DNA of 64,000 bases from Eunapius fragilis (lineage: Eukaryota; Porifera; Demospongiae; Spongillida; Spongillidae), in assembly GCA_963681505.1 (NCBI GenBank), contig OY811986.1, positions 2,423,554 through 2,487,553 of the forward strand, read 5' to 3'. Made by a program: the position numbers and the translations under genes. Under the pieces are notes generated by a model, which saw nothing but the letters and a program-made list of their open reading frames with translations, ran no database searches and had not been told where the DNA came from. Below, piece by piece: positions 38,625-62,250 of this stretch; positions within the stretch are counted from its first letter, which is position 1; every line of letters begins with the position of its first letter.

Positions 38625-38762
38625 ACTGACACACATACATTACATACATACATCCATACATACATACATACATGCATACATACATACACAATACACACAT
38701 GCATGCATACATACATACATACATACATGCATACATGAATACATACATACATACATACACAT

Positions 38763-38835
<73 letters not shown>

Positions 38836-39008
38836 TACATACATACATACATACATACATACATACATACATACATACATACATACATACATACATACAT
38901 ACATACATACATACATACATACATACATACATACATACATACATACATACATACATACATACATACATACATACATACATACATACATACATACATCATA
39001 CATACATA
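38625..39008. repeat. (ACAT)n/(AC)n microsatellite
   Basis: An almost uninterrupted (ACAT)n tract, with an (AC)n core at about 38780-38830 and variant units at the left edge. The long six-frame ORFs over it (alternating Met-Tyr-Val-Cys or Ile-His-Thr-Tyr) are products of the repeat. It borders the 5'-truncated LINE that follows. Confidence 0.95.
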
Positions 39009-41120
39009 ATACATACTGATCCCTGTGAAATCAGAGAACGCTGGAAAAACCATTTTGATAAAGTGTTTAACGTTTCCACCTGTACTTTTAACAATAGCAT
39101 TCTTCCTATCATTCCTCAACAACCTGTATTTGAAACCCTTGCCTTACCACTACAATCACTGAAGTGAAGGAGGCTCTGTCTCGGATGAAATGTAGAAGTG
39201 CTGCTGGCAAAGATGGTATATCAGCTAAGCTTCTTATATTTGGTGGAGAGGGTGTTACTGTTGCTTTACACTCCCTTTTCTTGGAGATCTGGTCATCAGA
39301 ACATGTCCCCAAACAATGGGTGGACTCTGTCATTGTACCCCTTCCTAAAAAAGGTGATCTCCACCTTTGTGACAACTGGAGGGGAATTTCCCTATCTTAG
39401 TGTTGCAGGAAAAGTGTTTGCCCGTCTAATAGCTGACCGCATTTCCAATACATCAGAATCTATCATCGATGAAACACAATGCGGTTTCCGCAAACAACGT
39501 GGAACAGTTGACATGATATTTGTCGCACATCAACTTCAAGAAAAAGCTCGAGAACAAAGCTGCCAACTCTTCATGTGTTTTTTTGACCTCAAAAAAGCAT
39601 ATGATTCTGTTCCGGGGATGCACTATGGTGCTTGCTTGGTAAATGGGGATTCCCTGCTAAAATGGTCAACATCATTAAACAACTGCATTTTGGTATGGAG
39701 GCTTCAGTACGTATAAATGGTGCATTATCGGAACCCTTCTTAGTCTCAAATGGGCTAAAACAAGGCTGTGTGTTAGCACCCTTCCTTTTCAACCTTTATT
39801 TCAATAAAGTGATGCAAGATGTTTTGAAGGATTTTGATGATGGTGTCCAAGTCAGTTACAAGATGGATGGAAAGCTTTTTAGACGTTCTGGGACAAGGCT
39901 CCCGATGTCATTTTCAATTTGTGACCTTAGATTTGCTGATGTTATCATGGCAAGTTGCCATGATGATGTTTCACTACAGGATATTATCAATCGCTTTTCT
40001 ACTGCAGCTCAAGAGTGGGGTCTATGTGTGGGCACAGACAAAACAAAAGTAATGATCCAATCTTCACCTTCTCATCCTACAAATGAATCACCTGTCTTCC
40101 ATATAAAAGGAAACAGTCTCTTCCTTTAGATATCTTGGCAGTATATTGTCATCAGATTCATCTTTATCCTCTGAAATAAACGCTCGTATTGCCAAGGCTG
40201 CTTCAGTATTCAATGGCCTAAAAAATAGGGTGTGGGAAAATTCCAATCTTTCCACCAAAACAAAACTTGCTGTCTACAACGCAACCGTTTTACCAGCAAT
40301 GCTCTATGGAGCAGAAGCTTGGTCCACCACTGCCTATAATCTTCATCGAATCAACACGTTTCATATGGCCTGTCTTCGTCAAGCATTCAACGTCAATCCT
40401 TTTCATCATGTCTATTCTTAGTCGGACTCAGTCCATTAGAGCTTCCACTCTCATTAGCCAGTTTAGATTGAGGTGGCTAGGCCATGTTTGGCAGATGGAA
40501 GACTACAGACTTTTTTGGTGAGTTATCATCTGGCAAACGTCCACAACACAGGCCAAAGCTGCGATGGCGGGACTGTGTATCCAAAGACCTGCAGGATTTT
40601 ATGATCCAACCTAACTGGCATGTTTTAGCAATGTCCAGAACTAGATGGCGAGAAGTGCTCAGTGAGGGTGCCAAAGCTGTTGATGAGTCTTTAAATAACA
40701 AATACAAGATACGTCATGCATGTCAGATGGGTCTGTCCTCTCCATCGAAAAGCAAGTGTAATATATATGCAATAAATTCTTCACAAGTGACCGTTACTTG
40801 CGTAGTCACTTCACACAGAAACATGGCTCAAACAGTCTGTTCGCCAGTTCATTACTTTCTGTTCAAAAATGTTTCTCTTGTCCAATCAGGGGATGTACAT
40901 TTACATCAGAATCAGAAAAGGGCATTAAAATTCACACAGGCCGCATCCACAAACAGATTACATGTACTATGAATGACGAAAATATTCCACCTATCAACAT
41001 TGCACTTCTACATCATGTCAGGTTGTCCTTTTACATCTAACTCCATCAAAGGCATCAAGATACATCTTAGGAAGTTTCACAAATGGTCGAAGTCAGATGT
41101 CAACACCAAATTAAATCCTT
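39009..41120 (+). pseudogene. 5'-truncated LINE with C-terminal zinc fingers
   Basis: Plus-strand frames, broken by several frameshifts, read through a non-LTR reverse transcriptase. They show the entry segment RSAAGKDGISAKLL (about 39190), LPKKGDLHLCDNWRGISL (39340), motif A CFFDLKKAYDSV (about 39580), motif B NGLKQGCVLAPFLFNLYF (39750), and the motif C region, degenerate as LRFADVIMAS (39930). A post-RT region contains AMLYGAEAW (40300) and FRLRWLGHVWQMED (40470). C2H2-like fingers follow: a shifted C..C...RSHFTQKH near 40755-40830, CPIRGCTFTSESEKGIKIH near 40880, and a third to about 41085. The endonuclease domain is absent. The motif C Asp-Asp has become Asp-Val. A dead copy; the 3' end runs into (ATT)n at 41218. 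Confidence 0.8.
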
Positions 41121-41217
41121 AACCTAGCAGTTGTGTTCATGTTTTCAAACTAGCTGGCTATACTCACTTCGCATTTTCCCTTCCCCCAAACGTGTTACAC
41201 ATGTGTAATGCGATTGC

Positions 41218-41218
41218 A

Positions 41219-41260
<42 letters not shown>

Positions 41261-41261
41261 A
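41218..41261. repeat. (ATT)n tract
   Basis: An uninterrupted ATT trinucleotide run separating the LINE 3' end from RLE-type retrotransposon copy B. It is the first of several such runs in the array that follows. Confidence 0.95.
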
Positions 41262-41380
41262 TACTTTAAGATATAACAGAGTATAGATACACGAATATAC
41301 AGCAGTAAGGTAATTAAATGCACCCTACTATAGGTACTAGACAGGGACAAAACACCTGGAGAGGATGGCTGTGGCATTGT
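41262..41380 (-). mobile_element. RLE-type retrotransposon copy B (3' end only)
   Basis: About 120 bp. The minus strand encodes NATAILSR and a short tail, matching the extreme C-terminus of the longer copies (ANATAILSRWLPS in copy E). It is bounded by (AAT)n on both sides (41381-41402 and 41222-41261). A 5' truncation this extreme leaves almost nothing but the 3' end. Confidence 0.6.
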
Positions 41381-41402
41381 TATTATTATTATTATTATTA
41401 TT

Positions 41403-42957
41403 TCATTTTACAACATTACTGCAATGACACACACAAACAATGTCAAGTCACTAGATCTGGTGCTCCCTTGCCAGGATGGCTCTGGCAATGGATCTAGCCA
41501 AAGTGATATTCAACCTGCTGTAAATGTCTGCCAAGATGGAAGGTTTGGGAGAGGACATGCTGATGGCAAGGTGGGATGCCAACCTAGAGAAAGTGAGGTG
41601 AGCCTCCTTACCCCAGTTGCAGAAGGTCTCCACCGGTAAGGGAATGCAAGTCCAGCCCAATTCCTGACATTTGGGGCCATTGCTGAGTAGCTTACGGGTC
41701 TCCGCTGCTGTAGAAGCTGCATCAGACATTCGACATGAATCCCTCAGTATGGCTGGGCAGAGAGGTGACGTTACTGTGACGTCAAATGTTGCAGGCTTTC
41801 CTCTGTCCCACCCCGCAATGAGCACATCAGCAGGCTGGTGTGGTTGTGGTCCTTGGTAAGACCATGGCCCTTCTCCACGGTCACAAGTAGATGAGCTCGC
41901 CGAGAGAAATCGACAATGACATCACACAAGTGATTATGCCTAACCACCACATCTCCCCCATGCCTGCATGTTGCAGCATGGTGACCCAGGGGATCAAGGG
42001 CAACCTCTGGGCAAAAGGGACACACAGATCTACCAACACCCACACCTAGCCACCACCTCATTGCGATCTGGAACTCATTGGGCTCTATATGTAAACCTAA
42101 GCCCTTGGAAGGGACCACTGACAGCCATGAAGGTGAATGAGGGGCTGATATAGACAGCAGTCAGGCCTTGCTGGCTGGGGAGGATGCTTCTAATAAAGAT
42201 TTGAATTGCTCCTCATCGATCTTGCTGGAAAGCTCTCTCTGAGGAATGGGAGAAGCAAGGACAGACTCAACCGTGATTGCGTTATGTCAGGCGACTTAGG
42301 AGTTATAGGCCGTAACTGCCTGCTGAAGATGGAGATTGTGCAATTTGCCCAGGCCTGATGAAGAAAGTGAGGATATGAAGGCGGCAGCAGCATGGCATGA
42401 GAGAGAACGAAGGCCTAAGCCCCCGAAAAACTAAGCTGAGCCTGTCACCAGGCCGTATCTGAGACTTCAATGGCTGAGCTGAGCACAAAGCACAGCCTCA
42501 CATCTTCATCAAACAACACTAGGGCATCAGAAGCCAAACTAGGAGGAGTGACCCTGGTTATGTGGACCATTTTGCAAAACCCTCCACACATGCACAGTAA
42601 TGTGAATGCCACCTGGAGATCAACTCCAGCCACATCCACCAGACTTGAGAGTAATTTCTTGGATTCAGCGCACTTGTCAGCTATAAATTTGGAACAGTGT
42701 AAATAGTCGCCAACAGGAGCACCAAGAATGTCCATATTTGGTAGAAGGGAGAACTTTACAACTGGTGGGATAGAGGTGTTACCTTTAGTGCTGAAGAGCT
42801 CACACTTGGCAAAGTTGATGTGCAGACCCAGACCAGGTCCCATCTCTTCAATGATGTGCATGGCCCGCAACACAGCTGGGCGGTCTCCAGCTAAGACACC
42901 ATCATCAAGATACCATGCCTGGTAGAGGAGGTCCACACATTCATCATCAGCATCTAC
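41403..42957 (-). pseudogene. RLE-type retrotransposon copy A
   Basis: The minus-strand frame pieces start at the RT active-site region with AWYLDDGVLAGDRPAVLRAM (42936-42870) and continue GLGLHINFAKCELFS. They then show LHIEPNEFQIAMRWWLGVG and the zinc-binding CPFCPEVALDPLGHHAATC (42110-41960). Next come GKPATFDVTVTSPL (41800) and a C-terminus KCQELGWTCIPLPVETFCNW to RSIARAIL (41460). Frameshifts occur near 42400, 42120 and 41830. The 5' boundary is an abrupt join to (AAT)n at about 42957. The 3' UTR of about 45 bp runs into another AAT run at 41381-41402. Confidence 0.8.
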
Positions 42958-42995
42958 ATTATTATTATTTTTTTATTATTATTTTTTATTATGAT

Positions 42996-43206
42996 GATAT
43001 AAAAATTAATTATAGAGATATACAAATACACTGATATATAAACATATACAACTAGACTACACACAATGTACACAAAATGCTAACTATATTTACCCTACAT
43101 CACTTTGACTGATGCTACGGGCAAGGATGGCAATTGCATTAACTCGTACCAGGTGAAGGTTCAGCCGCCCGTAGAGTACAGTAAGAACCACTAACTTTGC
43201 CTTGGA
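42996..43206 (-). mobile_element. RLE-type retrotransposon copy C (3' end only)
   Basis: The minus strand reads a few C-terminal codons (YGRLNLHLVRVNAIAILARS with frame slips) followed by a 3' UTR. (AAT)n-rich sequence borders it on both sides (about 42957-42995 and 43207-43230). Confidence 0.6.
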
Positions 43207-43230
43207 TGAGCAAGTATTATTATTATTATT

Positions 43231-43727
43231 ATTATTTATTTTTTTACATACTTAACATTTTATTTGGAATACAAGATACAAGAGAATACATGAAATACAC
43301 ATATTATTATTGAACATAGATTACATGTACAACGAAATAAAGCCCCTAAGTAGTGTACAGCACACCAAAAAGACCCACAACACCCGAAGAACACCCACCC
43401 TAACCCACATGTCTCAATTAACCCCCGTCTACTGACTGCAACAGCCTTGCATGGGATAGCATGGCTCTTGCATTACAACGGACTAAGGTCAGGTTAGGTC
43501 TCTGGTATATGGTCGTTGTGGCTTTGGACTTGCTGCACTGTAACTGCAAAGCCAGGCGGGCTGCAAGGCAAGAAAACGAACTATGTGCTTCTCCCCCCCA
43601 GCACCCATAAGACTCGACCGCTAAGGGAATGCAGACCCACCCCAGCTCCCTGCCCTTAGGGTCGTTGGCATTGTGCTTGCGCACTTCGGCCTTGCCCGCT
43701 GCTGACCCACTTGTAGCTTCCGCTTAT
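43231..43727 (-). mobile_element. RLE-type retrotransposon copy D (3' end only)
   Basis: The minus-strand frame 43727-43418 reads RKHNANDPKGRELGWVCIPL, AVESYGCWGGEA and LTLVRCNARAML, the C-terminal segment of the family, then a long 3' UTR. The 5' junction is directly on (AAT)n at 43726-43753 and the 3' junction on the run at 43206-43240. Confidence 0.7.
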
Positions 43728-43754
43728 TATTATTATTATTATTATTATTATTTA

Positions 43755-43894
43755 CTGCATGGCTTAAGCGTGCCACAAAGAATTATAAGGTACATGCATG
43801 CAGTTACATCTTATGACTCAAAATGCTAGGCCTACCTAAATGCTGAATAAATTTTGTCTTGCAGTTAATAATATCATTATTTTTTTTTTTTTTG

Positions 43895-43930
<36 letters not shown>

Positions 43931-43935
43931 TTTAT
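43755..43935. repeat. Unassigned spacer and (ATT)n run
   Basis: About 110 bp of unassigned sequence (43755-43875), then poly-T and (ATT)n (43878-43935) that form the 3' border of copy E. Confidence 0.6.
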
Positions 43936-44288
43936 TTATATATACAAGAGAATACATGAATAGGAATACAATATTTAGGAGGAGAAATAACATGCATGAA
44001 TTATTAATAACTCATGCTACAGTTCAATAAACTTTAAGATGGGAGCCACCTGGAAAGGATTGCTGTCGCATTTGCCCTCACCAGATGCAAGTTGAGCCTG
44101 CTATACAGGTCAGACAGCACAACCGACTTTGGTTTGCCCGATATGATGGCAAGACGGGAGGCAAGCATCTTAAACGAGTCCATGGCTTCCTTTCCCCAAG
44201 CACCATAGGACTCCGTGACCAGAGGTACACAATACCAGCCCAAAGCATTGCATTTGGGGTCATTCTCATTAATTATTCTAATAAATAA
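43936..44288 (-). mobile_element. RLE-type retrotransposon copy E (3' end only)
   Basis: The minus-strand frame reads NENDPKCNALGWYCVPLVTE, then SYGAWGKEAMDSFKMLASRL and LHLVRANATAILSRW, the family C-terminus, and a 3' UTR. A/T trinucleotide runs flank both sides (44286-44300 and about 43895-43935). Confidence 0.75.
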
Positions 44289-44299
44289 TAATAATAATA

Positions 44300-46262
44300 T
44301 ATATACATAATACACACCAACATGTTATTATTATTTAACTAAAGTCAGAAGGGATCACAGTCCTAGCCAGTATGGCCCTTGCTATGGCTCTCACCAGGGT
44401 GATATTCAACCTTCCAAACATGTCACTGATCACCCTGGCTTTACGAAATGAGGAAGAGCCAAAGGCCAAGCGTGTGGCCAGTAGAGCAAAGGTTCCTCTT
44501 GCTTCCTCACCCCAATTGCAGTAAGTTTCTACTGCTAGAGGCACACACCTCCAGCCTAGTTCAGCACATTTAGGGTCATTGGCTGTGTGCTTTCTGTTTT
44601 CTGCAGCTTCAGCAGCAGCACCCACCCTCCTACTTGCCTCAGCCAAAATAGCAGGGGTAAGAGGAGATGTGACCGTGATGTCAAAGGCCGCCGGCTTGCC
44701 TTGAGCCCAGTCCCTCACTAGCACATCAGCTGGGCGAGCGCGATCCAGTCCTGGAGTGAGGCCACTTCCAGCTTCTAACCTTGCTGCAATGTGGGCTTGG
44801 TGGCAAAAGCTCAGAAAGACATCACGCAACCTATTGTGACGTATAACTACATCGCCACCACGCCGGCAGGTAGCTGCATGATGGCCTAGAGGGTCCAATG
44901 CCACATCAGGGCAGAGACCACATGAAGAGCCTCTGGAGGTGTCCAAGCCCAACCACCACTTCACTGCTATCTGAAGCTCATTGGGATCTAAATGTAGCCC
45001 AAGACCTATAGAAGGCACAACTGAGAGCCAAGAGGCTGCATGGGGTGCAGATGTAGAAAGAAGACGTGCTTTGTCTGCGTCAGTTGCAGCTGCAATTACA
45101 AGCCCAAAAGAGTGGTCATCCAGCCTCTGAGACAAGATTCTCTGTGGGATCGGGGAAGCTAAAATAGACTCCACAGAGATGCCATCTGGAGGTGAGACCA
45201 AACCATTGTACTTGACAATTGACCGCATCAGGTGAGGGTTGTCAGCACTCCCCAGGCCAGAAAAGCTCAGTGATGCAATGTATGCCGCACAGGAATGGTG
45301 TGAAATTGAGCGCAGACCAAGGCCACCATAGCTCAAGCCAAGTTGAGCCTGTTTCCAGGCTACATCAGAAATGTCCGTGGCTACACAGTTTGAAAAACAC
45401 ATCCTGACATCCCTGTCAAAGGACTCCAGGGAGCTAAAGGCAAGGTGAGGGGGTGTTGTTCGAGCCACATGCACCATTTTGCAGAAGCCACCACACAAAC
45501 GCACGAGGATAAGAGCTACCTGAGGATCAATACTGGCAACCTCTTCCAATTTAGAAAGCAGCTTTGAGGCAATCTTGCGCCTAGAAGCAATGAACTTTGA
45601 GCAAAACAAGAAGTCACCTATGGGGGCCCCAAGTATCTCCAAATGTGGCACCTGAGAACTCTTTATCATCACCGGGAAGGTGCTGCTCAGCTCATTACGA
45701 CTATACAGCTCACATTTGGCAAGGTTGATAAAAATACCAAAAGGAGGACCCAATTCTTCAATCAAGTGCATCGCTCTAAGTACTGCAGATTTAGGGCCAG
45801 CCAGCACCCCATCATCCAGGAACCATGCATTGAAAAGCATCTCAATGCATTCAACATCCACATCGACTGCGGAGATGATTTTTTGGAGCACGAGAGCAAA
45901 AAGTAAAGGGCCTAGTGGGTCCCCCTGCTGAACCCCTGATTCTGAAGACACACGGCCCATCGGATGCCACAGTACTGAATGTGTACCATAGCACCATAAT
46001 ACCCAAGGTAGGAGTTCAGGGAAGAGAGAAGCGCATTCATCCAGGATGGCTTGCCTTGAGACCAAGTTGAAGGCGTTCCTCATGTCTACCTTGAGCACCA
46101 CGAAATCCTCATCATCCCAGTGGTCCTCAATGCACTTCCTCAGGCCATGGATGATCTTCTCTGATCCTGCACTACATGCTACTCCAAACTGAAGTGGGTG
46201 GAAAAGCTCAGATGCCTTGTCCTTGATGACAGCACACAGGCATTTCCCCGTCAACCTCCTTA
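44300..46262 (-). CDS. RLE-type non-LTR retrotransposon copy F, long open frame
   Basis: The open frame 46254-44335 (639 codons) begins inside the reverse transcriptase and is otherwise uninterrupted. Motif A is VLKVDMRNAFNLVSR, motif B is SGVQQGDPLGPLLFALVL and motif C is AWFLDDGVLAG (Phe-Leu-Asp-Asp). After the RT comes LHLDPNELQIAVKWWLGL, then a CxxC...H...C zinc-binding block, CGLCPDVALDPLGHHAATC. A PD-(D/E)XK-like segment follows, RPADVLVRDWAQGKPAAFDI. The C-terminus is KCAELGWRCVPLAVETYCNW to LVRAIARAILA. RT then CCHC-type finger then restriction-like endonuclease is the layout of R2/CRE-group elements (family knowledge); assignment to that group is inference. The N-terminus and 5' UTR are missing: the 5' edge joins (AAT)n at about 46270. 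It is not autonomous but is the best-preserved copy. Confidence 0.85.
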
Positions 46263-46361
46263 ATGTCTCCCCATTATTATTTTATTTTATTTTTAAAGGA
46301 TAAACACAATTACTTTATTATAAGAGTAACTAACTTACAATTATTATTATTATTATTATTA
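46263..46361. repeat. AT-rich and (ATT)n border
   Basis: ATTATT and TTTTATTTTATT sequence at 46273-46300, and (ATT)n at 46338-46361. It separates copy F from the next short fragment. Confidence 0.7.
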
Positions 46362-46548
46362 TGATCTTAATAACAGTAATAAAACTGTATAAAACAATAC
46401 ATAAACAGTAATAAACGCACATTTATTATCACTATTATAATAACCTTAAAAATCAGTAGTATAAGGTGAAAAAAGTGTTCCTAGGATGGAGGCAGCATTG
46501 CCCCTTTGTACAGCCACTGAAAGACGTTGGAGCAGATAGCTGTATATA
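46362..46548 (-). mobile_element. RLE-type retrotransposon copy I (3' end only)
   Basis: The minus strand reads YSYLLQRLSVAVQRGNAASI LGT-like codons, a divergent version of the family C-terminus (YGRLNLTLVRANARAIL in other copies), followed by 3' UTR. It is flanked by ATT runs at 46549-46574 and 46338-46361. Confidence 0.55.
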
Positions 46549-46574
46549 TTATTATTATTATTATTATTATTATT

Positions 46575-46675
46575 GATTATTGAGCAAGAAACAATAGTAC
46601 ACCACTCACAAGAACAAAGAACTAACTACATTACACTACACTACACACAATTATTATTATTATTATTATTAATAC
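46575..46675. repeat. 3' UTR-like remnant and (ATT)n
   Basis: 46577-46647 resembles 48250-48295 (GTACACCA...AAGAACTAACTACA...ACACTACACTA), i.e. 3' UTR-derived sequence of this family. (ATT)n follows at 46650-46672 and forms the 5' border of copy G. Confidence 0.5.
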
Positions 46676-48240
46676 ATGATGATGGAGTCCTTGCTGGAAC
46701 CAGTTTTTCTGTCAGAGCTGCCCTGGATGTCATTTCATCATTGGGTCCTTCTCTTGGGCTATACATCAACTTTGCAAAATGTGAGGTGTTTGGCAAGGCA
46801 GAGCTATCTGCATTCCCATCTGAGATCACTAAACGATATCACACTCCTCAACTTGAAATTTTGGGTGCACCAATAGGTGATGAGGAATTTTGTAATAACT
46901 TTGTGATCAACAAACAGTCAAGTGTTTCTTTCCTTCTCCAGCAGTTACAAGTGTTGGAAAACCCCCAGCTAGCACTTGCATTGTTACGAAAGTGTGCAGC
47001 ATTTTGCAAAATGACACACATCTCACGTGTTACCCCTCCAACCTTAATAAAGTCATCATTGTCTGAATTTGATGATAGCATTCACCACTGTTTCACAGAG
47101 TGCTTGGCCCTCAATCTGTCACCACAAAGTTCAGGTTGGAAGCAAGCCTGCTTAAGCCTTAGCAGAGGAGGGCTTGGTTTAAGATCAGTAGCTGTTCACT
47201 CCACAGCAGCATATCTAGGCTCAGTTAGTTCCTCTTCCCCAGACTTGGCATCTAGCCAGTATGTTATAGATGCACTTAACCTGTTCAATCTCCAAGTTTC
47301 TGCTGAGGATACTGTATCTATTCCGTTGCCAACGAACTCTCATTTTCAGCATGATTTGTCACAACGAATTGAGAATTGCCAATTCCATGCACTGTATAAC
47401 TCTGGCAGTCTGGCCGATCGGGCCCGCTTACTCTCAATTTCATCGGTGCATGCCTCCTCATGGCTTCAGGTGGTTCCCTCCCCTAGGCAGGGCTGCGACT
47501 TGACTACAAGCGAAATGCAGTGGGGCATCAAATGGTGGCTTGGTCTTCCTCTAACACCTGAATTAGGGGTATGTGCTTATTGTCCAGACAAAGCTCTGGA
47601 TGCACACCATGCTGTTACTTGCAAGTTTGGGGGAGATGTAGTGGCGCGCCACAATGCTCTGCGCAATGCTATTTTTGATTTTTGCAAGCGAGCCCTTCTG
47701 AACCCAAAATTGGAAGCAGGTGCAGGTTTGGGTCATGAAAGGAGACTAACTAGACCTGCAGACATACTCATCCCAAGCTGGTCCAATAGTGATAAGCCTG
47801 CAGCCATTGATGTGTCCATCACCTCTCCGCTTAAATCAAACATTTTGTCTGAAGCGGGTGTGGTGGCAGGTGCAGCAGCAAGGCAAACAGAAGAGAGAAA
47901 GCATATATCCAATGATACTATCTGCGCCGAATTGGGAAGGAAGTGTGTACCATTAGTGTTGGAGACGTTTGGTGCTTGGGGAAGAACTGCAGGCCAGTTT
48001 TTTGGAGAACTCGCATCACGACTTGCGGCTCAAAGCCATTCCTCAAAGACTATAATGTTGAATAACATCTATGGGAGACTAAGCCTCACACTAGTTCGAG
48101 CCAATGCCCGTGCTTTCAATGCTAGGGTGGCTACAACAATGGACTTGCTTGAAGGCTAGGGTAGTTTTATGCAAGTTCGTGTGTAGCAACGTGTATATAT
48201 GTGCATTTATTTTATTGTTTATTATTTAATCATTAAAAAA
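46676..48240 (+). CDS. RLE-type retrotransposon copy G (plus strand)
   Basis: The only copy in the plus orientation. The frame is open from within the (ATT)n run to 48159. Family sequence starts abruptly at the RT active site, HDDGVLAGTSFSVRAALDVI, then LGLYINFAKCEVF, EILGAPIGDEEF and MQWGIKWWLGLPL. The finger is CAYCPDKALDAHHAVTC, followed by RPADILIPSWSNSDKPAAID and VSITSPLKSNIL, ending LTLVRANARAFNARV. The protein is clearly diverged from copy F. The ATG of the open frame lies in flanking repeat, so it is not a genuine start. No RT motifs A or B are present. The 3' end is A/T-rich at about 48203-48240. Confidence 0.8.
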
Positions 48241-48412
48241 AATAAAAATACATGAATAGTACACCAAAGAACTAACTACAATACACTACACTATTGTAAA
48301 CTAAACAAAAAGTCTATTCATGAGCTAACTCTCTTCCCATGATGGCCCTTGCCACAGACCTCACCAGTGACAGGTTGAGGCGTCCATAAATTTCAGCAAC
48401 CATTTTGGGTTT
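48241..48412 (-). mobile_element. RLE-type retrotransposon copy H (3' end only)
   Basis: The minus-strand codons PKMVAEIYGRLNLSLVRSVA to RAIMGRELAHE (48405-48314) are the family C-terminus, followed by a 3' UTR to about 48245. The 5' edge joins a short ATT run (48416-48423), then the (ATGT)n microsatellite. Confidence 0.7.
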
Positions 48413-48487
48413 GATTATTATTATGTATGTATGTATGTATGTATGTATGTATGTATGTATGTATGTATGTATGTATGTATGTATGTA

Positions 48488-48520
<33 letters not shown>

Positions 48521-48680
48521 ATGTATGTATGTATGTATGTATGTATGTATGGATGCATGTATGTATGTATGTATGTATGTAATGTATGCATGCATGCATG
48601 CATGTACGTACGTACGTACAGACAGACACCAGACACACACACACACACACACACATACACACACACACACACACACCAGA
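48413..48680. repeat. (ATGT)n and (AC)n microsatellite
   Basis: (ATGT)n with a GTGT core (48424-48600), a (CGTA)n/GACA transition, then (AC)n (48629-48677). In the plus orientation it is the complement of the (ACAT)n tract at 38625-39008, so the two face each other across the 9.4-kb nested block. Confidence 0.95.
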
Positions 48681-48686
48681 TGGGAG

Positions 48687-49016
48687 CCATTACCAGCTCG
48701 ATGATGCACTGTGAAGTCATATTCTGACAAGATCTCGAGCCACCTAACAAACTGTCCATTAGGATCTTTAAAATGACTCAGCCAACACAGTGCACTATGG
48801 TCTGTCCAGATCAAAAATGAACGGCCCCATAAATAAGGCTTAAAATGCTGCACTGCCCACACCAAGACTAACATTTCCCTATGGGTGACACAATACTGGT
48901 GTTTGGTTTTAGTCAGTACCCAGCTTGCATAGGCTACCACCTGTCTATCATTGTCCTGAGAGAGAACAGCACTAATGCCCTTCTAACTAGCATCCGTGTC
49001 CAATGTGAATTCCAAA
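48687..49016 (-). pseudogene. Ty3/gypsy-like RNase H region
   Basis: The minus-strand frame shows EFTLDTDAS (near 49010), a stop codon one position later, then KGISAVLSQDND, VVAYASWVLTKTKHQYCVTH, REMLVLVWAVQHFKPYLW, FLIWTDHSALCWL and ILSEYDFTVHHRAGNGSH. These are the Asp, Glu and Asp positions of a retroviral-type RNase H as found in Ty3/gypsy pol. Coding stops at the (AC)n tract (48680), and the following residues of the polyprotein resume at about 38412. Upstream the frame is cut by a TTAA-flanked insertion and resumes for a few codons beyond 50378. RT and protease are not found. Confidence 0.8.
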
Positions 49017-51386: not shown

Positions 51387-54300
51387 ATGCGTGGAGTCAG
51401 TCTGCTGGTTCTCGTTTACTTAGCCGTATTAGACAGAACTCGCTGTGCGGACCCTGCACATGAATTGACTGCAACTGCTTGTCTTTTGCGCAAAAATGAT
51501 ACCTTAAAGTCGCAGTTCCAGCGGTCAGTCAAGCTGCAGTACAACGTCACGAACAGTAACAGTAAGTGCAAATATATTTAGATATATACGATCTGTTTGC
51601 GGCGCTGCCTCTCTATCACCTCGATTAATTGCAGATCGCTTCGCTGTCGTCAAGTTGAATCAGTTAAACGCAGTACGGTGCTATGCAGCAACGTGTGGGA
51701 ATGCAACGATATCCGATGTGACGTGGTGTGTGCACATCTACCATCCTACGCAAGAGGTTCGCATGTGCCTCAATGAGAGCGGGGTCGTCAGCCAGACTCC
51801 CTTGGCCGCTGCTCTGAAGCTTGATGCACAGTTCGACCTTAGGAAGGTACGCTACCAGCTCCTGCAGTAACGTGCAAGAGAATGCATTATTATCCGTTTT
51901 GGATGCGCAGGATTGCGATCTCTTTAAGTCTCCGTACGGATGCCTGTGGACGACGAACACACAGTTCTATTTGAACGCTGCCTACTTCGTTTGTAGTGTG
52001 GAAACTTATAGCTGTGCCGATCGTGCCTTTGTTGAAGTGATTGTGGACGGTGCGCTCGTATTCATTATTGTAGAACCTTTATTCAAATATATTTGTTTTT
52101 CCTTCTTCTAATTATCTAGCAAGCACAGCAACAATCAGAGTAACAGAGCTCCCAGAGTCTCCTACAAGTATTACTATAGGCCAAAGTGCTGTTCTGAAAT
52201 GCAACGCCACTGTCACCGCTTCTATCGGATACATGGAATGGTCGCGCAACGGAACTGGTTATGACATGATTATGGAGGATCCGTACTGCATCCCTTCGGC
52301 CAACACTACAGTAAGCGTCCAGTGTTTATGCGTTTTCGTACTTGCTCGCTCATTGGTGGGCTTTTTCAAAGTGCGACGTAGACAATACCCTGACCGCTGC
52401 AAAGGCAAAGCTTCAGAGGGTGCGGCCATATTTGGTGAGGTACTCATACCCGCTCTGTGGCGGAGTGCAGGTAGACATGGTGGCCTATCTCGTGATCGAT
52501 AATGTCACCGCGACAGACGCGGGAGAGTACAGTTGCTCTGCAACATATTTCCTCCGTGCAAGAGGTACTTCAGAAACGTATTACGTGAATATTACTACAG
52601 GTATTTGTTCGCAATTTGATCCAGAGGTGTATGCATTGACTTTGATCATCTGTTTAGTTCTAAGTGCTAAGGGCACGCAAACGCCCATACCCACTGTGCA
52701 CTCTGTTGAAGGTATGAACGTGTGCGTGTTTGTTGACCGGTTCCTGTAAATTAAGCAAATGATTGCACCCTCTGCTTAACACCAGATATGGTTGCTGTGT
52801 CGTTGGCACCAGGTGAGTCCAATATAGCACCCTTGTCACTTTAGATGCCATTAATGGAGTTGCATCTCCTCACAGTGCATGACAACCTCAATGCAGTCTA
52901 CATATCTGTCCCGATCTCCATGATGTGTTTGATACTGCTGCTGATATGTGTCATCGTGTTAGTCCTGCATATGAAGAACAAGAAGTCAAGTAAAAGGATA
53001 CAGGCAAAGGATATTGTAATTTATGAGAAAGAACTGGGCACCTTCTCGCATAAGATGAATGTCCTTCAAAACGACTTGTCTGGTATTCCAGACCTTTGGG
53101 AATTTCCTAGAGAGAGGCTCCATATCCAAAGCAACAAATTGCTAGGTGAGCCAGTTGTGAAAGACTACTTTGATTAGCCTTAGTAAATTGCTGCACTGTA
53201 ACAGTGTACCGTTAAACTCATGGACTAGGCTCATGGACTAGGCTCATGGACTAGGCTCATGGGCTAGGCTCATGGGCTAGGCTCATGGACTAGGCTCATG
53301 GGCTAGGCTCATGGGCTAGGCTCATGGGCTAGACTCGTGGGCTAGGCTCATGGGCTAGGCTCATGGGCTAGGCTCATGGGCTAGGCTCATGGACTAGGCT
53401 CATGGGCTAGGCTCATGGACTAGGCTCATGGGCTAGGCTCATGGACTAGGCTCATGGGCTAGGCTCATGGGCTAGACTCATAGGCTAGGCTCATGGGCTA
53501 GGCTCATGGGCTAGGCTCATGGACTAGGCTCATGGACTAGGCTCATGGGCTAGGCTCATGGACTAGGCTCATGGGCTAGGCTCATGGACTAGGCTCATGG
53601 GCTGGACTCGTGGGCTAGGCTCATGGGCTAGGCTCATGGACTAGGCTCATGGACTAGGCTCATGGACTAGGCTCATGGGCTAGGCTCATGGGCTAGGCTC
53701 ATGGGCTAGGCTCATGGGCTGGGCTCATGGACTAGGCTCATGGGCTAGACTCATGGACTAGGCTCATGGGCTAGGCTCATGGACTAGGCTCATGGACTAG
53801 GCTCATGGGCTAGGCTCATGGACTAGGCTCATGGGCTAGGCTCATGGACTAGGCTCATGGACTAGGCTCATGGACTAGGCTCATGGGCTAGGCTCATGGG
53901 CTAGGCTCATGGGCTAGGCTCATGGGCTGGGCTCATGGACTAGGCTCATGGGCTAGACTCATGGACTAGGCTCATGGGCTAGGCTCATGGACTAGGCTCA
54001 TGGACTAGGCTCATGGACTAGGCTCATGGGCTAGGCTCATGGGCTGGGCTCATGGACTAGGCTCATGGGCTAGGCTCATGGGCTAGGCTCATGGGCTAGG
54101 CTCGTGCACTAGGCTCATTCCAACTCATGGGTACTTACTTATGGAGTGTTTCCATTCTTAGGGAAGGGTGCATTTGGTAAGGTCTTCAAAGCACTTGCCA
54201 ATGGGATTAATCCTGACACACCAGAGAGGAACACTGTGGCTGTAAAAATGGTCAAAGGTACAGCCGGGACCACAGCGTCTCTCTCAGTGAGCCATAGAGA

Positions 54301-62017: not shown

Positions 62018-62250
62018 ACACTGCCTTGTTCCCTGTAGCATGGCTACATAACACTGCCTTGTTCCCTGTAGCATGGCTACATAACACTGCCTTGTTCCCT
62101 GTAGCATGGCTACATAACACTGCCTTGTTCCCTGTAGCATGGCTACATAACACTGCCTTGTTCCCTGTAGCATGGCTACATAACACTGCCTTGTTCCCTG
62201 TAGCATGGCTACATAACACTGCCTTGTTCCCTGTAGCATGGCTACATGAC
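62018..62250. repeat. 33-bp minisatellite
   Basis: Seven nearly identical copies of a 33-bp unit (CACTGCCTTGTTCCCTGTAG then CATGGCTACATAA). Because 33 is a multiple of three, open frames run through it on both strands (plus strand repeat TALFPVAWLHN). The flanking codons have no coding character, so I regard these as repeat artefacts. Copy-to-copy identity is near complete, indicating recent expansion. Confidence 0.95.

What the first reader, a model, noticed from the sequence alone, without database searches (positions are those of the whole stretch)
41218..48423. Chain of 5'-truncated retrotransposon copies, almost all bounded by (ATT)n/(AAT)n on both sides
About nine copies (B, A, C, D, E, F, I, G, H) of one protein family lie side by side, eight of them on the minus strand. 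Each stops at a different 5' point, and nearly every 5' and 3' junction falls in an A/T trinucleotide run. A tail repeat alone explains the 3' ends but not the 5' ends. The simplest reading is that the element targets (AAT)n, including the tails of earlier copies, and so grows a head-to-tail chain. Microsatellite targeting is known for Dong-type (R4-clade) elements in TAA repeats.
Basis: partly seen in the sequence, partly recalled or inferred. Interest (0 to 1): 0.75.

Follow-up and report, generated by a model that had tools for sequence, protein, structure and literature searches.

The report
Sponge retrotransposon chain in AAT microsatellite
In what looks like a freshwater-sponge genome, a family of self-copying DNA prefers to land in the short repeat AAT, leaves AAT on both sides of a new copy, and so builds chains of broken copies; the kind of target is known from other animals, but here unoccupied sister sites show what such a spot looks like before a chain grows.

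Summary
Window 41219-48421 holds ten minus-strand pieces and one plus-strand piece of a non-LTR retrotransposon family with an R2-like reverse transcriptase and a restriction-like-endonuclease (RLE) motif. Ten of the window's eleven AAT/ATT runs of four or more units lie among them. Best genomic matches of six pieces range from 93% to 100%, so the chain formed by several insertions.

Decisive test: the repeat end bordering the array on the left has nine genomic copies. Four run on without a family member in the 250-900 bp seen; five carry one inside (TTA)n, all in one orientation. AAT was there first. The window site holds 248 nt of such runs; the longest empty site 33.

Targeting is a preference: 26 of 60 young truncated copies have at least 9 nt AAT/ATT within 60 bp 5' (controls 0.5% and 2.1%); 34 do not. 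AAT beside 3' ends is no fixed tail: AAT at 15 places, ATT at 10, of 132. R4/Dong membership could not be tested. The RT motif is Y/FLDD in 28 of 35 aligned sequences, F/YADD in none.

The parts
40387..41218 (+). left host flank: end of another repeat family (9 genomic copies of its last 179 bp), ending ...GCGATTGCAA before the microsatellite
   Evidence: 79% identical to L040 over about 900 bp; nine genomic copies of its end
41219..41259 (.). (ATT)13.7, outer left part of the target microsatellite
   Evidence: same place as (TTA)11 in the empty site L040
41260..41379 (-). copy B: last codons + 3' UTR
   Evidence: 100% over 93 bp to L017 and L018
41380..41402 (.). (ATT)7.7 between copies B and A
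41403..42957 (-). copy A: RT C-terminal part, CCHC, RLE motif region, 3' UTR; best genomic match 95%
42958..42992 (.). imperfect (ATT)n
42993..43214 (-). copy C: C-terminal end + 3' UTR; best genomic match 93% over 187 bp
43215..43236 (.). (ATT)7.3
43237..43723 (-). copy D; best genomic match 97%
43724..43752 (.). (TTA)9.7
43753..43898 (.). 146-nt stretch of unknown origin between two AAT runs
   Evidence: no family match
43899..43936 (.). (TTA)n, about 10.7 perfect units
43937..44271 (-). copy E; genomic match of 100% over 327 bp
44284..44299 (.). (AAT)5.3, opposite strand to the other runs
44300..46275 (-). copy F: open frame 46275-44338 (646 aa: RVT_1, CCHC, RLE motif) + 3' UTR; 99% identical copies elsewhere
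46276..46340 (-). copy I2: 3'-UTR-only piece
   Evidence: 87% to L047 over 46 bp
46340..46362 (.). (ATT)7.7
46363..46546 (-). copy I: last codons + 3' UTR
   Evidence: 96-97% to L056 and L009 over about 120 bp
46547..46574 (.). (TAT)9.3
46575..46649 (-). copy J: 75-nt 3'-UTR-only piece
   Evidence: 88-89% to L032, L033, L035
46650..46671 (.). (ATT)7.3; 5' flank shared by J (minus) and G (plus)
46677..48245 (+). copy G: opposite orientation, open to its stop codon; best genomic match 98%
48246..48412 (-). copy H: last codons + 3' UTR, 3' end facing G's 3' end
48413..48618 (.). (ATT)3 then (TATG)n: right-hand remainder of the compound microsatellite

Best explanation
A non-LTR retrotransposon family with an R2-like RT and a restriction-like-endonuclease motif, in what is probably a sponge genome, prefers to insert into (AAT)n/(ATT)n microsatellites that are already present. 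In the window, copies of several lineages inserted one after another, mostly as 5'-truncated cDNAs, into one compound (TTA)n(TATG)n microsatellite at the end of another repeat. Insertions left AAT on both sides, so the AAT between copies became the next target and a chain grew. Shown: the target pre-exists, it is hit repeatedly, one orientation is favoured, the copies differ in lineage, and the occupied site holds more AAT than empty ones. Inferred: RLE nicking of one strand, target-primed reverse transcription with frequent early termination, and gain of AAT units by a staggered second cut or by slippage.
For: Sister sites: of nine copies of the left-flank repeat end, four run on with no family member (L040 over 900 bp; L118, L120, L123 over about 250 bp seen). 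Five carry family members in the microsatellite (window, L117, L119, L121, L122), all five with the 3' end towards the flank. Second host repeat: all eight copies fetched (L109-L116) carry an (AAT)2-4 stretch at, or about 15 nt before, the places where F copies L073 and L066 join 5'. Junctions: 26 of 60 young truncated copies have at least 9 nt AAT/ATT within 60 bp 5', controls 0.5% and 2.1%; at least 12 nt in 22 of 60, controls 0.1% and 1.0%. Microsatellite-centred: 17 of 22 (AAT)9 runs (all of C1, and C2 to 5.72 Mb) have family sequence within 900 bp. Strand: at >=12 nt AAT 17, ATT 3 in lineages F, X13 and X09. Best genomic matches: A 95%, C 93%, D 97%, E 100%, F 99%, G 98%. RLE motif (relaxed) in 30 of 35 aligned sequences, 0 of 7000 shuffles; R2 proteins are the best solved matches of the profile.
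Against: 34 of 60 young truncated copies have no AAT/ATT run of 9 nt 5', and in the nearly identical X13 lineage 7 of 15 lack it, so decay does not explain the misses. In 19 whole copies, AAT at the 5' and 3' ends is only weakly associated (7 both, 1 5' only, 6 3' only, 5 neither; p = 0.15; this count includes the duplicate pair L069/L070 and the 3'-cut copy L068). Only 24 of 132 3'-end words are followed within 30 bp by (AAT)4 or (ATT)4. Many copies of the A lineage show no clear AAT at their ends. The strand preference has exceptions outside G (L029, L045, L046, L065, L090). The occupant of L122 is known by its 3' end only, and the L009 copy with the same 3' UTR is just 29% identical in protein to copy F, so it may be a distant relative. 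The endonuclease is inferred from motifs; its stretch of the profile matches R2 with no significance, and a structure prediction could not be run.
Confidence: 0.85

Rival explanations
1. [quoted passage not shown]
For: The order 3' end - AAT - truncated 5' end is what template jumping would leave, and RTs of LINEs jump templates (passages of PMC6895275). In 6 of 19 whole copies AAT is at the 3' side only. Some 3' ends run from A-rich sequence into AAT. Of the 26 AAT-flanked junctions, 20 have some family-like match in the 120-900 bp upstream, part of them perhaps only the A/T repeat itself.
Against: Empty sister sites already hold the AAT. Repeats behind the 3' word occur in both orientations, 15 AAT and 10 ATT. 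Pieces of one chain have best matches from 93% to 100%. 6 of the 26 AAT-flanked junctions have no family match in the 120-300 bp upstream at hand, nor do L039 and L015 in 900 bp.
Confidence: 0.07
2. The family has a general preference for A/T-rich DNA; AAT runs are only the most visible part of it, and A/T-rich flanks attract later insertions.
For: 5' flanks are A/T-rich in all four lineages (mean 0.76-0.86 over 30 bp, window background 0.59), and 34 of 60 lack AAT runs of 9 nt.
Against: AAT enrichment is about 20- and 80-fold over the two controls at >=9 nt and larger at >=12 nt. Five of nine sister microsatellites are occupied, all in one orientation. F, X13 and X09 favour the AAT strand 17 to 3 at >=12 nt.
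Confidence: 0.2
3. The chain was put together by recombination or segmental duplication between dispersed AAT-flanked copies, not by repeated insertion.
For: AAT tracts could serve as exchange points; some copies elsewhere are duplicated with their flanks (L069/L070, L102/L103).
Against: Copies A and F of the chain are 65% identical over 570 bp, and the sister sites carry different copies. Recombination would still need copies already flanked 5' by AAT.
Confidence: 0.06

Closest known systems
Dong (R4 clade, Bombyx mori), which targets (TAA)n
   Same: Same target motif (PMC2887409, passages); an R4-lineage element tested with TAA repeats as its 5' flank (PMC3774820, passages).
   Different: Clade not tested here; targeting here is a preference; chains of truncated copies of several lineages; Y/FLDD RT motif; no HDV-like ribozyme match in eight loci.
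HERO families and Togen (fish, (TG)n) with microsatellite specificity
   Same: RLE elements with microsatellite targets (PMC4640811, passages).
   Different: Togen has a different motif; the motifs of the HERO families and the RT phylogeny were not compared here.
MoTeR telomeric retrotransposons of Magnaporthe oryzae
   Same: RLE elements (PMC12857005, passages) that form multi-copy arrays with truncated copies and tracts of the target repeat between them (PMC7367193, passages); closest match in how the chain looks.
   Different: Target is the telomere repeat at chromosome ends, where breakage and repair also shape arrays; here a microsatellite inside a contig, and copies of several lineages.
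R2 (28S rDNA)
   Same: Best solved matches of the family profile, E 3.6e-12, in the RT part.
   Different: R2 inserts at one 28S rDNA site (abstract of PMC3774820); the C-terminal match to R2 is collinear but not significant.

Membership tests
RLE-type non-LTR retrotransposons | one ORF with RT and no APE endonuclease | tested here: met
   1151-aa homologue P0045 with RVT_1 as its only Pfam match; RVT_1 also in window copy F and L013; no endonuclease family in the N-terminal frame of L015
RLE-type non-LTR retrotransposons | C-terminal CCHC followed by RHD/N - E - R/KPD - D/E motif | tested here: inconclusive
   relaxed pattern (R-PAD allowed) in 30 of 35 aligned sequences, 0 of 7000 shuffles; the strict printed pattern matches 0 of 35 (pattern from PMC12857005)
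non-LTR retrotransposons at large | F/YADD catalytic motif, printed as found in all of them (PMC3774820, passage) | tested here: not met
   0 of 35 have [FY]ADD or [FY]VDD; 28 of 35 have YLDD or FLDD
R4/Dong clade | insertion in TAA/AAT repeats (Dong) | tested here: met
   as a preference:
R4/Dong clade | RT phylogeny groups with R4 | not testable with these tools
   no named R4, HERO or NeSL reference proteins were at hand; the matches in the PDB are R2, L1 and more distant RTs
R4/Dong clade | HDV-like self-cleaving ribozyme at the 5' end | tested here: inconclusive
   no Rfam ribozyme match up to E 5 in 8 loci; in L015 the ATG follows the AAT run by under 20 nt
R4 element | 13-bp target-site duplication (PMC6895275, passage) | tested here: inconclusive
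   20 whole copies searched (L070 a duplicate): 17 without a shared word of 8 nt or more with two G/C, 3 with words of 8-9 nt at unlike distances; duplications made of A/T only, as in (AAT)n, were not looked for
HERO clade | RT phylogeny; some families microsatellite-specific | not testable with these tools
   no reference proteins at hand

The most novel reading that the evidence does not exclude
The family makes its own niche. Insertion into (AAT)n multiplies (AAT)n, so occupied sites become larger targets, chains grow by positive feedback, and the family keeps up most of the genome's long AAT microsatellites. Lineages have also divided the target by strand: G inserts in the opposite orientation to most F, X13 and X09 copies.
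Probability: 0.35. Interest if true: 0.68.

Novelty: new variant of a known kind. Interest (0 to 1): 0.5.

Why it matters
A transposon that leaves more of its own target behind with each insertion has a built-in way to concentrate itself at a few places. One paper (PMC2887409, passages) argues that elements inserting into existing simple repeats would not increase those repeats; at this locus the site holds 248 nt of AAT/ATT runs, against at most 33 nt in empty sister sites. The nine sister sites, partly empty and partly filled by different copies, are a natural experiment for target choice, strand choice and 5' truncation in RLE elements.

Tried and rejected
Considered and rejected: local duplication (A and F only 65% identical); chance; AAT as a fixed tail (both strands found; target present in empty sites); decay as the reason why some 5' ends lack AAT (7 of 15 nearly identical X13 copies lack it).

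Led nowhere: Rfam search for a 5' ribozyme (19 matches, none a ribozyme and all below their family's gathering score); target-site duplications; association of AAT at both ends (p = 0.15); papers on this family or on AAT chains (searches: nothing of the kind in the titles and abstracts listed; open-licence full texts only). No RT tree with named clades was built, for want of reference proteins.

What the counts rest on: lineage hit lists are the 40 best-scored of 236-956 first-look candidates. Truncated hits examined: F 28 of 28, X13 15 of 15 at 99% or more, X09 9 of 10 and G 11 of 17 at 96% or more. Dropped from the 63 before one search's count: L050 (upstream continues as coding), L070 and L103 (duplicates). 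L072 was dropped for masked letters. Of 36 distinct (AAT)9 runs in the listed part, 22 were examined; the other 14 were not requested, to save letters. Random control stretches were drawn but not requested; the controls are window DNA outside the array and the element-rich loci L009-L028.
Full report
What is there. The window lies in a 219-Mb assembly of 24 contigs. Among the 120 listed relatives of the encoded protein the named ones are Ephydatia muelleri proteins, so the host is probably a freshwater sponge; this is inference. Between 41219 and 48421 lie eleven pieces of one retrotransposon family, ten minus and one plus. Copy F has an open frame of 646 aa with RVT_1. A homologue of 1151 aa (P0045) shows the whole plan: a Cys-rich N-terminus and a zinc-finger-like motif, RVT_1, a CCHC knuckle and an RLE-like motif (one search lists the conserved columns). 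The RLE pattern, relaxed to allow R-PAD, matches 30 of 35 aligned sequences and 0 of 7000 shuffles; the strict printed pattern matches none. The RT active site reads Y/FLDD in 28 of 35 and F/YADD in none, although PMC3774820 (passages) speaks of F/YADD in all non-LTR elements. The profile's best solved matches are R2 proteins in the RT part (E 3.6e-12); its C-terminal stretch lines up with R2's but without significance.

Not chance, not duplication. Ten of eleven AAT/ATT runs of at least four units in 64 kb lie in the array (P = 2e-10). Copies A and F align over 570 bp at 65% identity; other pairs align only over 50-161 bp at 67-80%. Best genomic matches are A 95%, C 93%, D 97%, E 100%, F 99% and G 98%. 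I take this as several lineages that inserted at different times.

Empty sites. L040 carries the same left-flank repeat as the window but runs straight from (TTA)11 into (TATG)n; the window's flanks, joined, align to it across that point, so the 7.2-kb array sits inside this compound microsatellite. The flank's end occurs nine times in the genome. Four have no family member: L040 with (TTA)11, L118 with about seven interrupted units, L123 with three, L120 with about one (read by eye; about 250 bp were seen of the last three). Five are occupied: the window, L117, L119, L121 and L122, all with the family's 3' end facing the flank. L117, L119 and L121 match in protein and the window's B copy by its 3' end. 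L122 matches by 3' UTR and 3'-end word only; the L009 copy with the same UTR is just 29% identical in protein to copy F, so L122 may hold a distant relative. AAT/ATT runs of at least four units in the window array sum to 248 nt, against 33 nt in L040, the longest empty site. By eye, L042 has a similar end and (AAT)10(CATA)n with no copy, and the A copy in L015, which reaches its ATG, lies in (CATA)nCAT(AAT)5.

A second host repeat. F copies L066 and L073 lie in a high-copy repeat (1285 first-look candidates, 40 scored). All eight other copies fetched (L109-L116) show an (AAT)2-4 stretch there. L073 joins at it, L066 about 15 nt after it. L090 (lineage X09) appears to lie in the same stretch in the opposite orientation; this was seen by eye and not tested.

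How strict it is. Sixty truncated copies of four young lineages were scored (F 26, X13 15, X09 9, G 10). A run of at least 9 nt of AAT/ATT lies within 60 bp 5' in 26 of 60 (controls: 108 of 20000 stretches of the window outside the array, 421 of 20000 in element-rich loci). At 12 nt it is 22 of 60 (22 and 198 of 20000). By lineage at 9 nt: F 10 of 26, X13 8 of 15, X09 6 of 9, G 2 of 10. Mean A/T content of the last 30 bp is 0.76-0.86 by lineage, against 0.59 in the window. From the microsatellite side, 17 of 22 (AAT)9 runs have family sequence within 900 bp and five do not (and L015).

The 3' side. The word CATGTATTCTCTTG marks many 3' ends: 132 in the genome, 2 for the word read backwards. 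It is followed within 30 bp by (AAT)4 at 15 distinct places and by (ATT)4 at 10, one place being in both lists: 24 of 132. Both strands occur, so this is not a fixed tail. In 19 whole copies AAT at the two ends co-occurs only weakly (7, 1, 6, 5; p = 0.15, with the duplicate pair L069/L070 both counted).

Orientation. At 12 nt, lineages F, X13 and X09 have the AAT strand 17 times and ATT 3 times; G has ATT in both clear cases among the 60, and also in the window, L038 and L044. Fisher p = 0.011 with three G cases, 0.001 with five. The window, L038 and L044 were not part of the 60 and were met through AAT runs, so this is a lead. Other lineages show the ATT strand at L029 and L045.

Mechanism. 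Shown: target present beforehand, repeated hits, favoured strand, 5' truncation to different extents, more AAT at the occupied site. Inferred from R2-type biology: one strand nicked by the RLE in or beside (AAT)n, its 3' end primes cDNA, synthesis often stops early, and a staggered second cut or slippage leaves AAT on both sides. R4 makes a 13-bp duplication (PMC6895275, passage); one of that size in AAT would add about four units and be invisible. That step is inference.

Known or new. Dong targets (TAA)n (PMC2887409), some HERO families and Togen target microsatellites (PMC4640811), and MoTeR elements form arrays with truncated copies and telomere tracts between them (PMC7367193); only passages of these papers were seen. 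The combination here, chains of several lineages in an internal AAT microsatellite with empty sister sites and a lineage of opposite orientation, was not seen in the searches listed in Tried and rejected. I file it as a new variant of a known kind; clade membership is open.

Noticed in passing
L013:6205-8205 (minus), window 44338-46275 and their homologues (alignment A1): RT catalytic motif is Y/FLDD in 28 of 35 aligned sequences and F/YADD in none, unusual for a non-LTR element.
   Followed up: partly
L066:1-285; L109-L116: A high-copy repeat with inverted halves (1285 first-look candidates; the 40 scored are 95-100% identical) that carries a short AAT stretch used by at least two insertions.
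   Followed up: partly
window 43753-43898: 146 nt between two AAT runs with no match to the loci fetched, apart from a weak 32-nt hit.
   Followed up: no
L044:839-980, L038:863-1033: Very short G-lineage copies (roughly 100 nt of the 3' end) with ATT on the 5' side, as in the window's G copy.
   Followed up: partly
L009:1091-3409: Two A-lineage pieces joined in opposite orientation, resembling an inversion.
   Followed up: no
L009:6455-7171 (minus): A copy only 29% identical in protein to copy F, whose 3' UTR matches the occupant of sister site L122: perhaps a distant lineage with the same target.
   Followed up: no
window 48314-48982 (minus frame): Frame that reads like the RT/RNase H part of an LTR retrotransposon beside the (TATG)n tract; identified by eye only.
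   Followed up: no
window 53217-54118 and 62018-62247: Long tandem arrays: a 13-bp unit about 69 times, and a 33-bp unit 7 times at 100% matches.
   Followed up: no
window 38629-39016: (ACAT)n array of about 98 units near the left of the locus.
   Followed up: no
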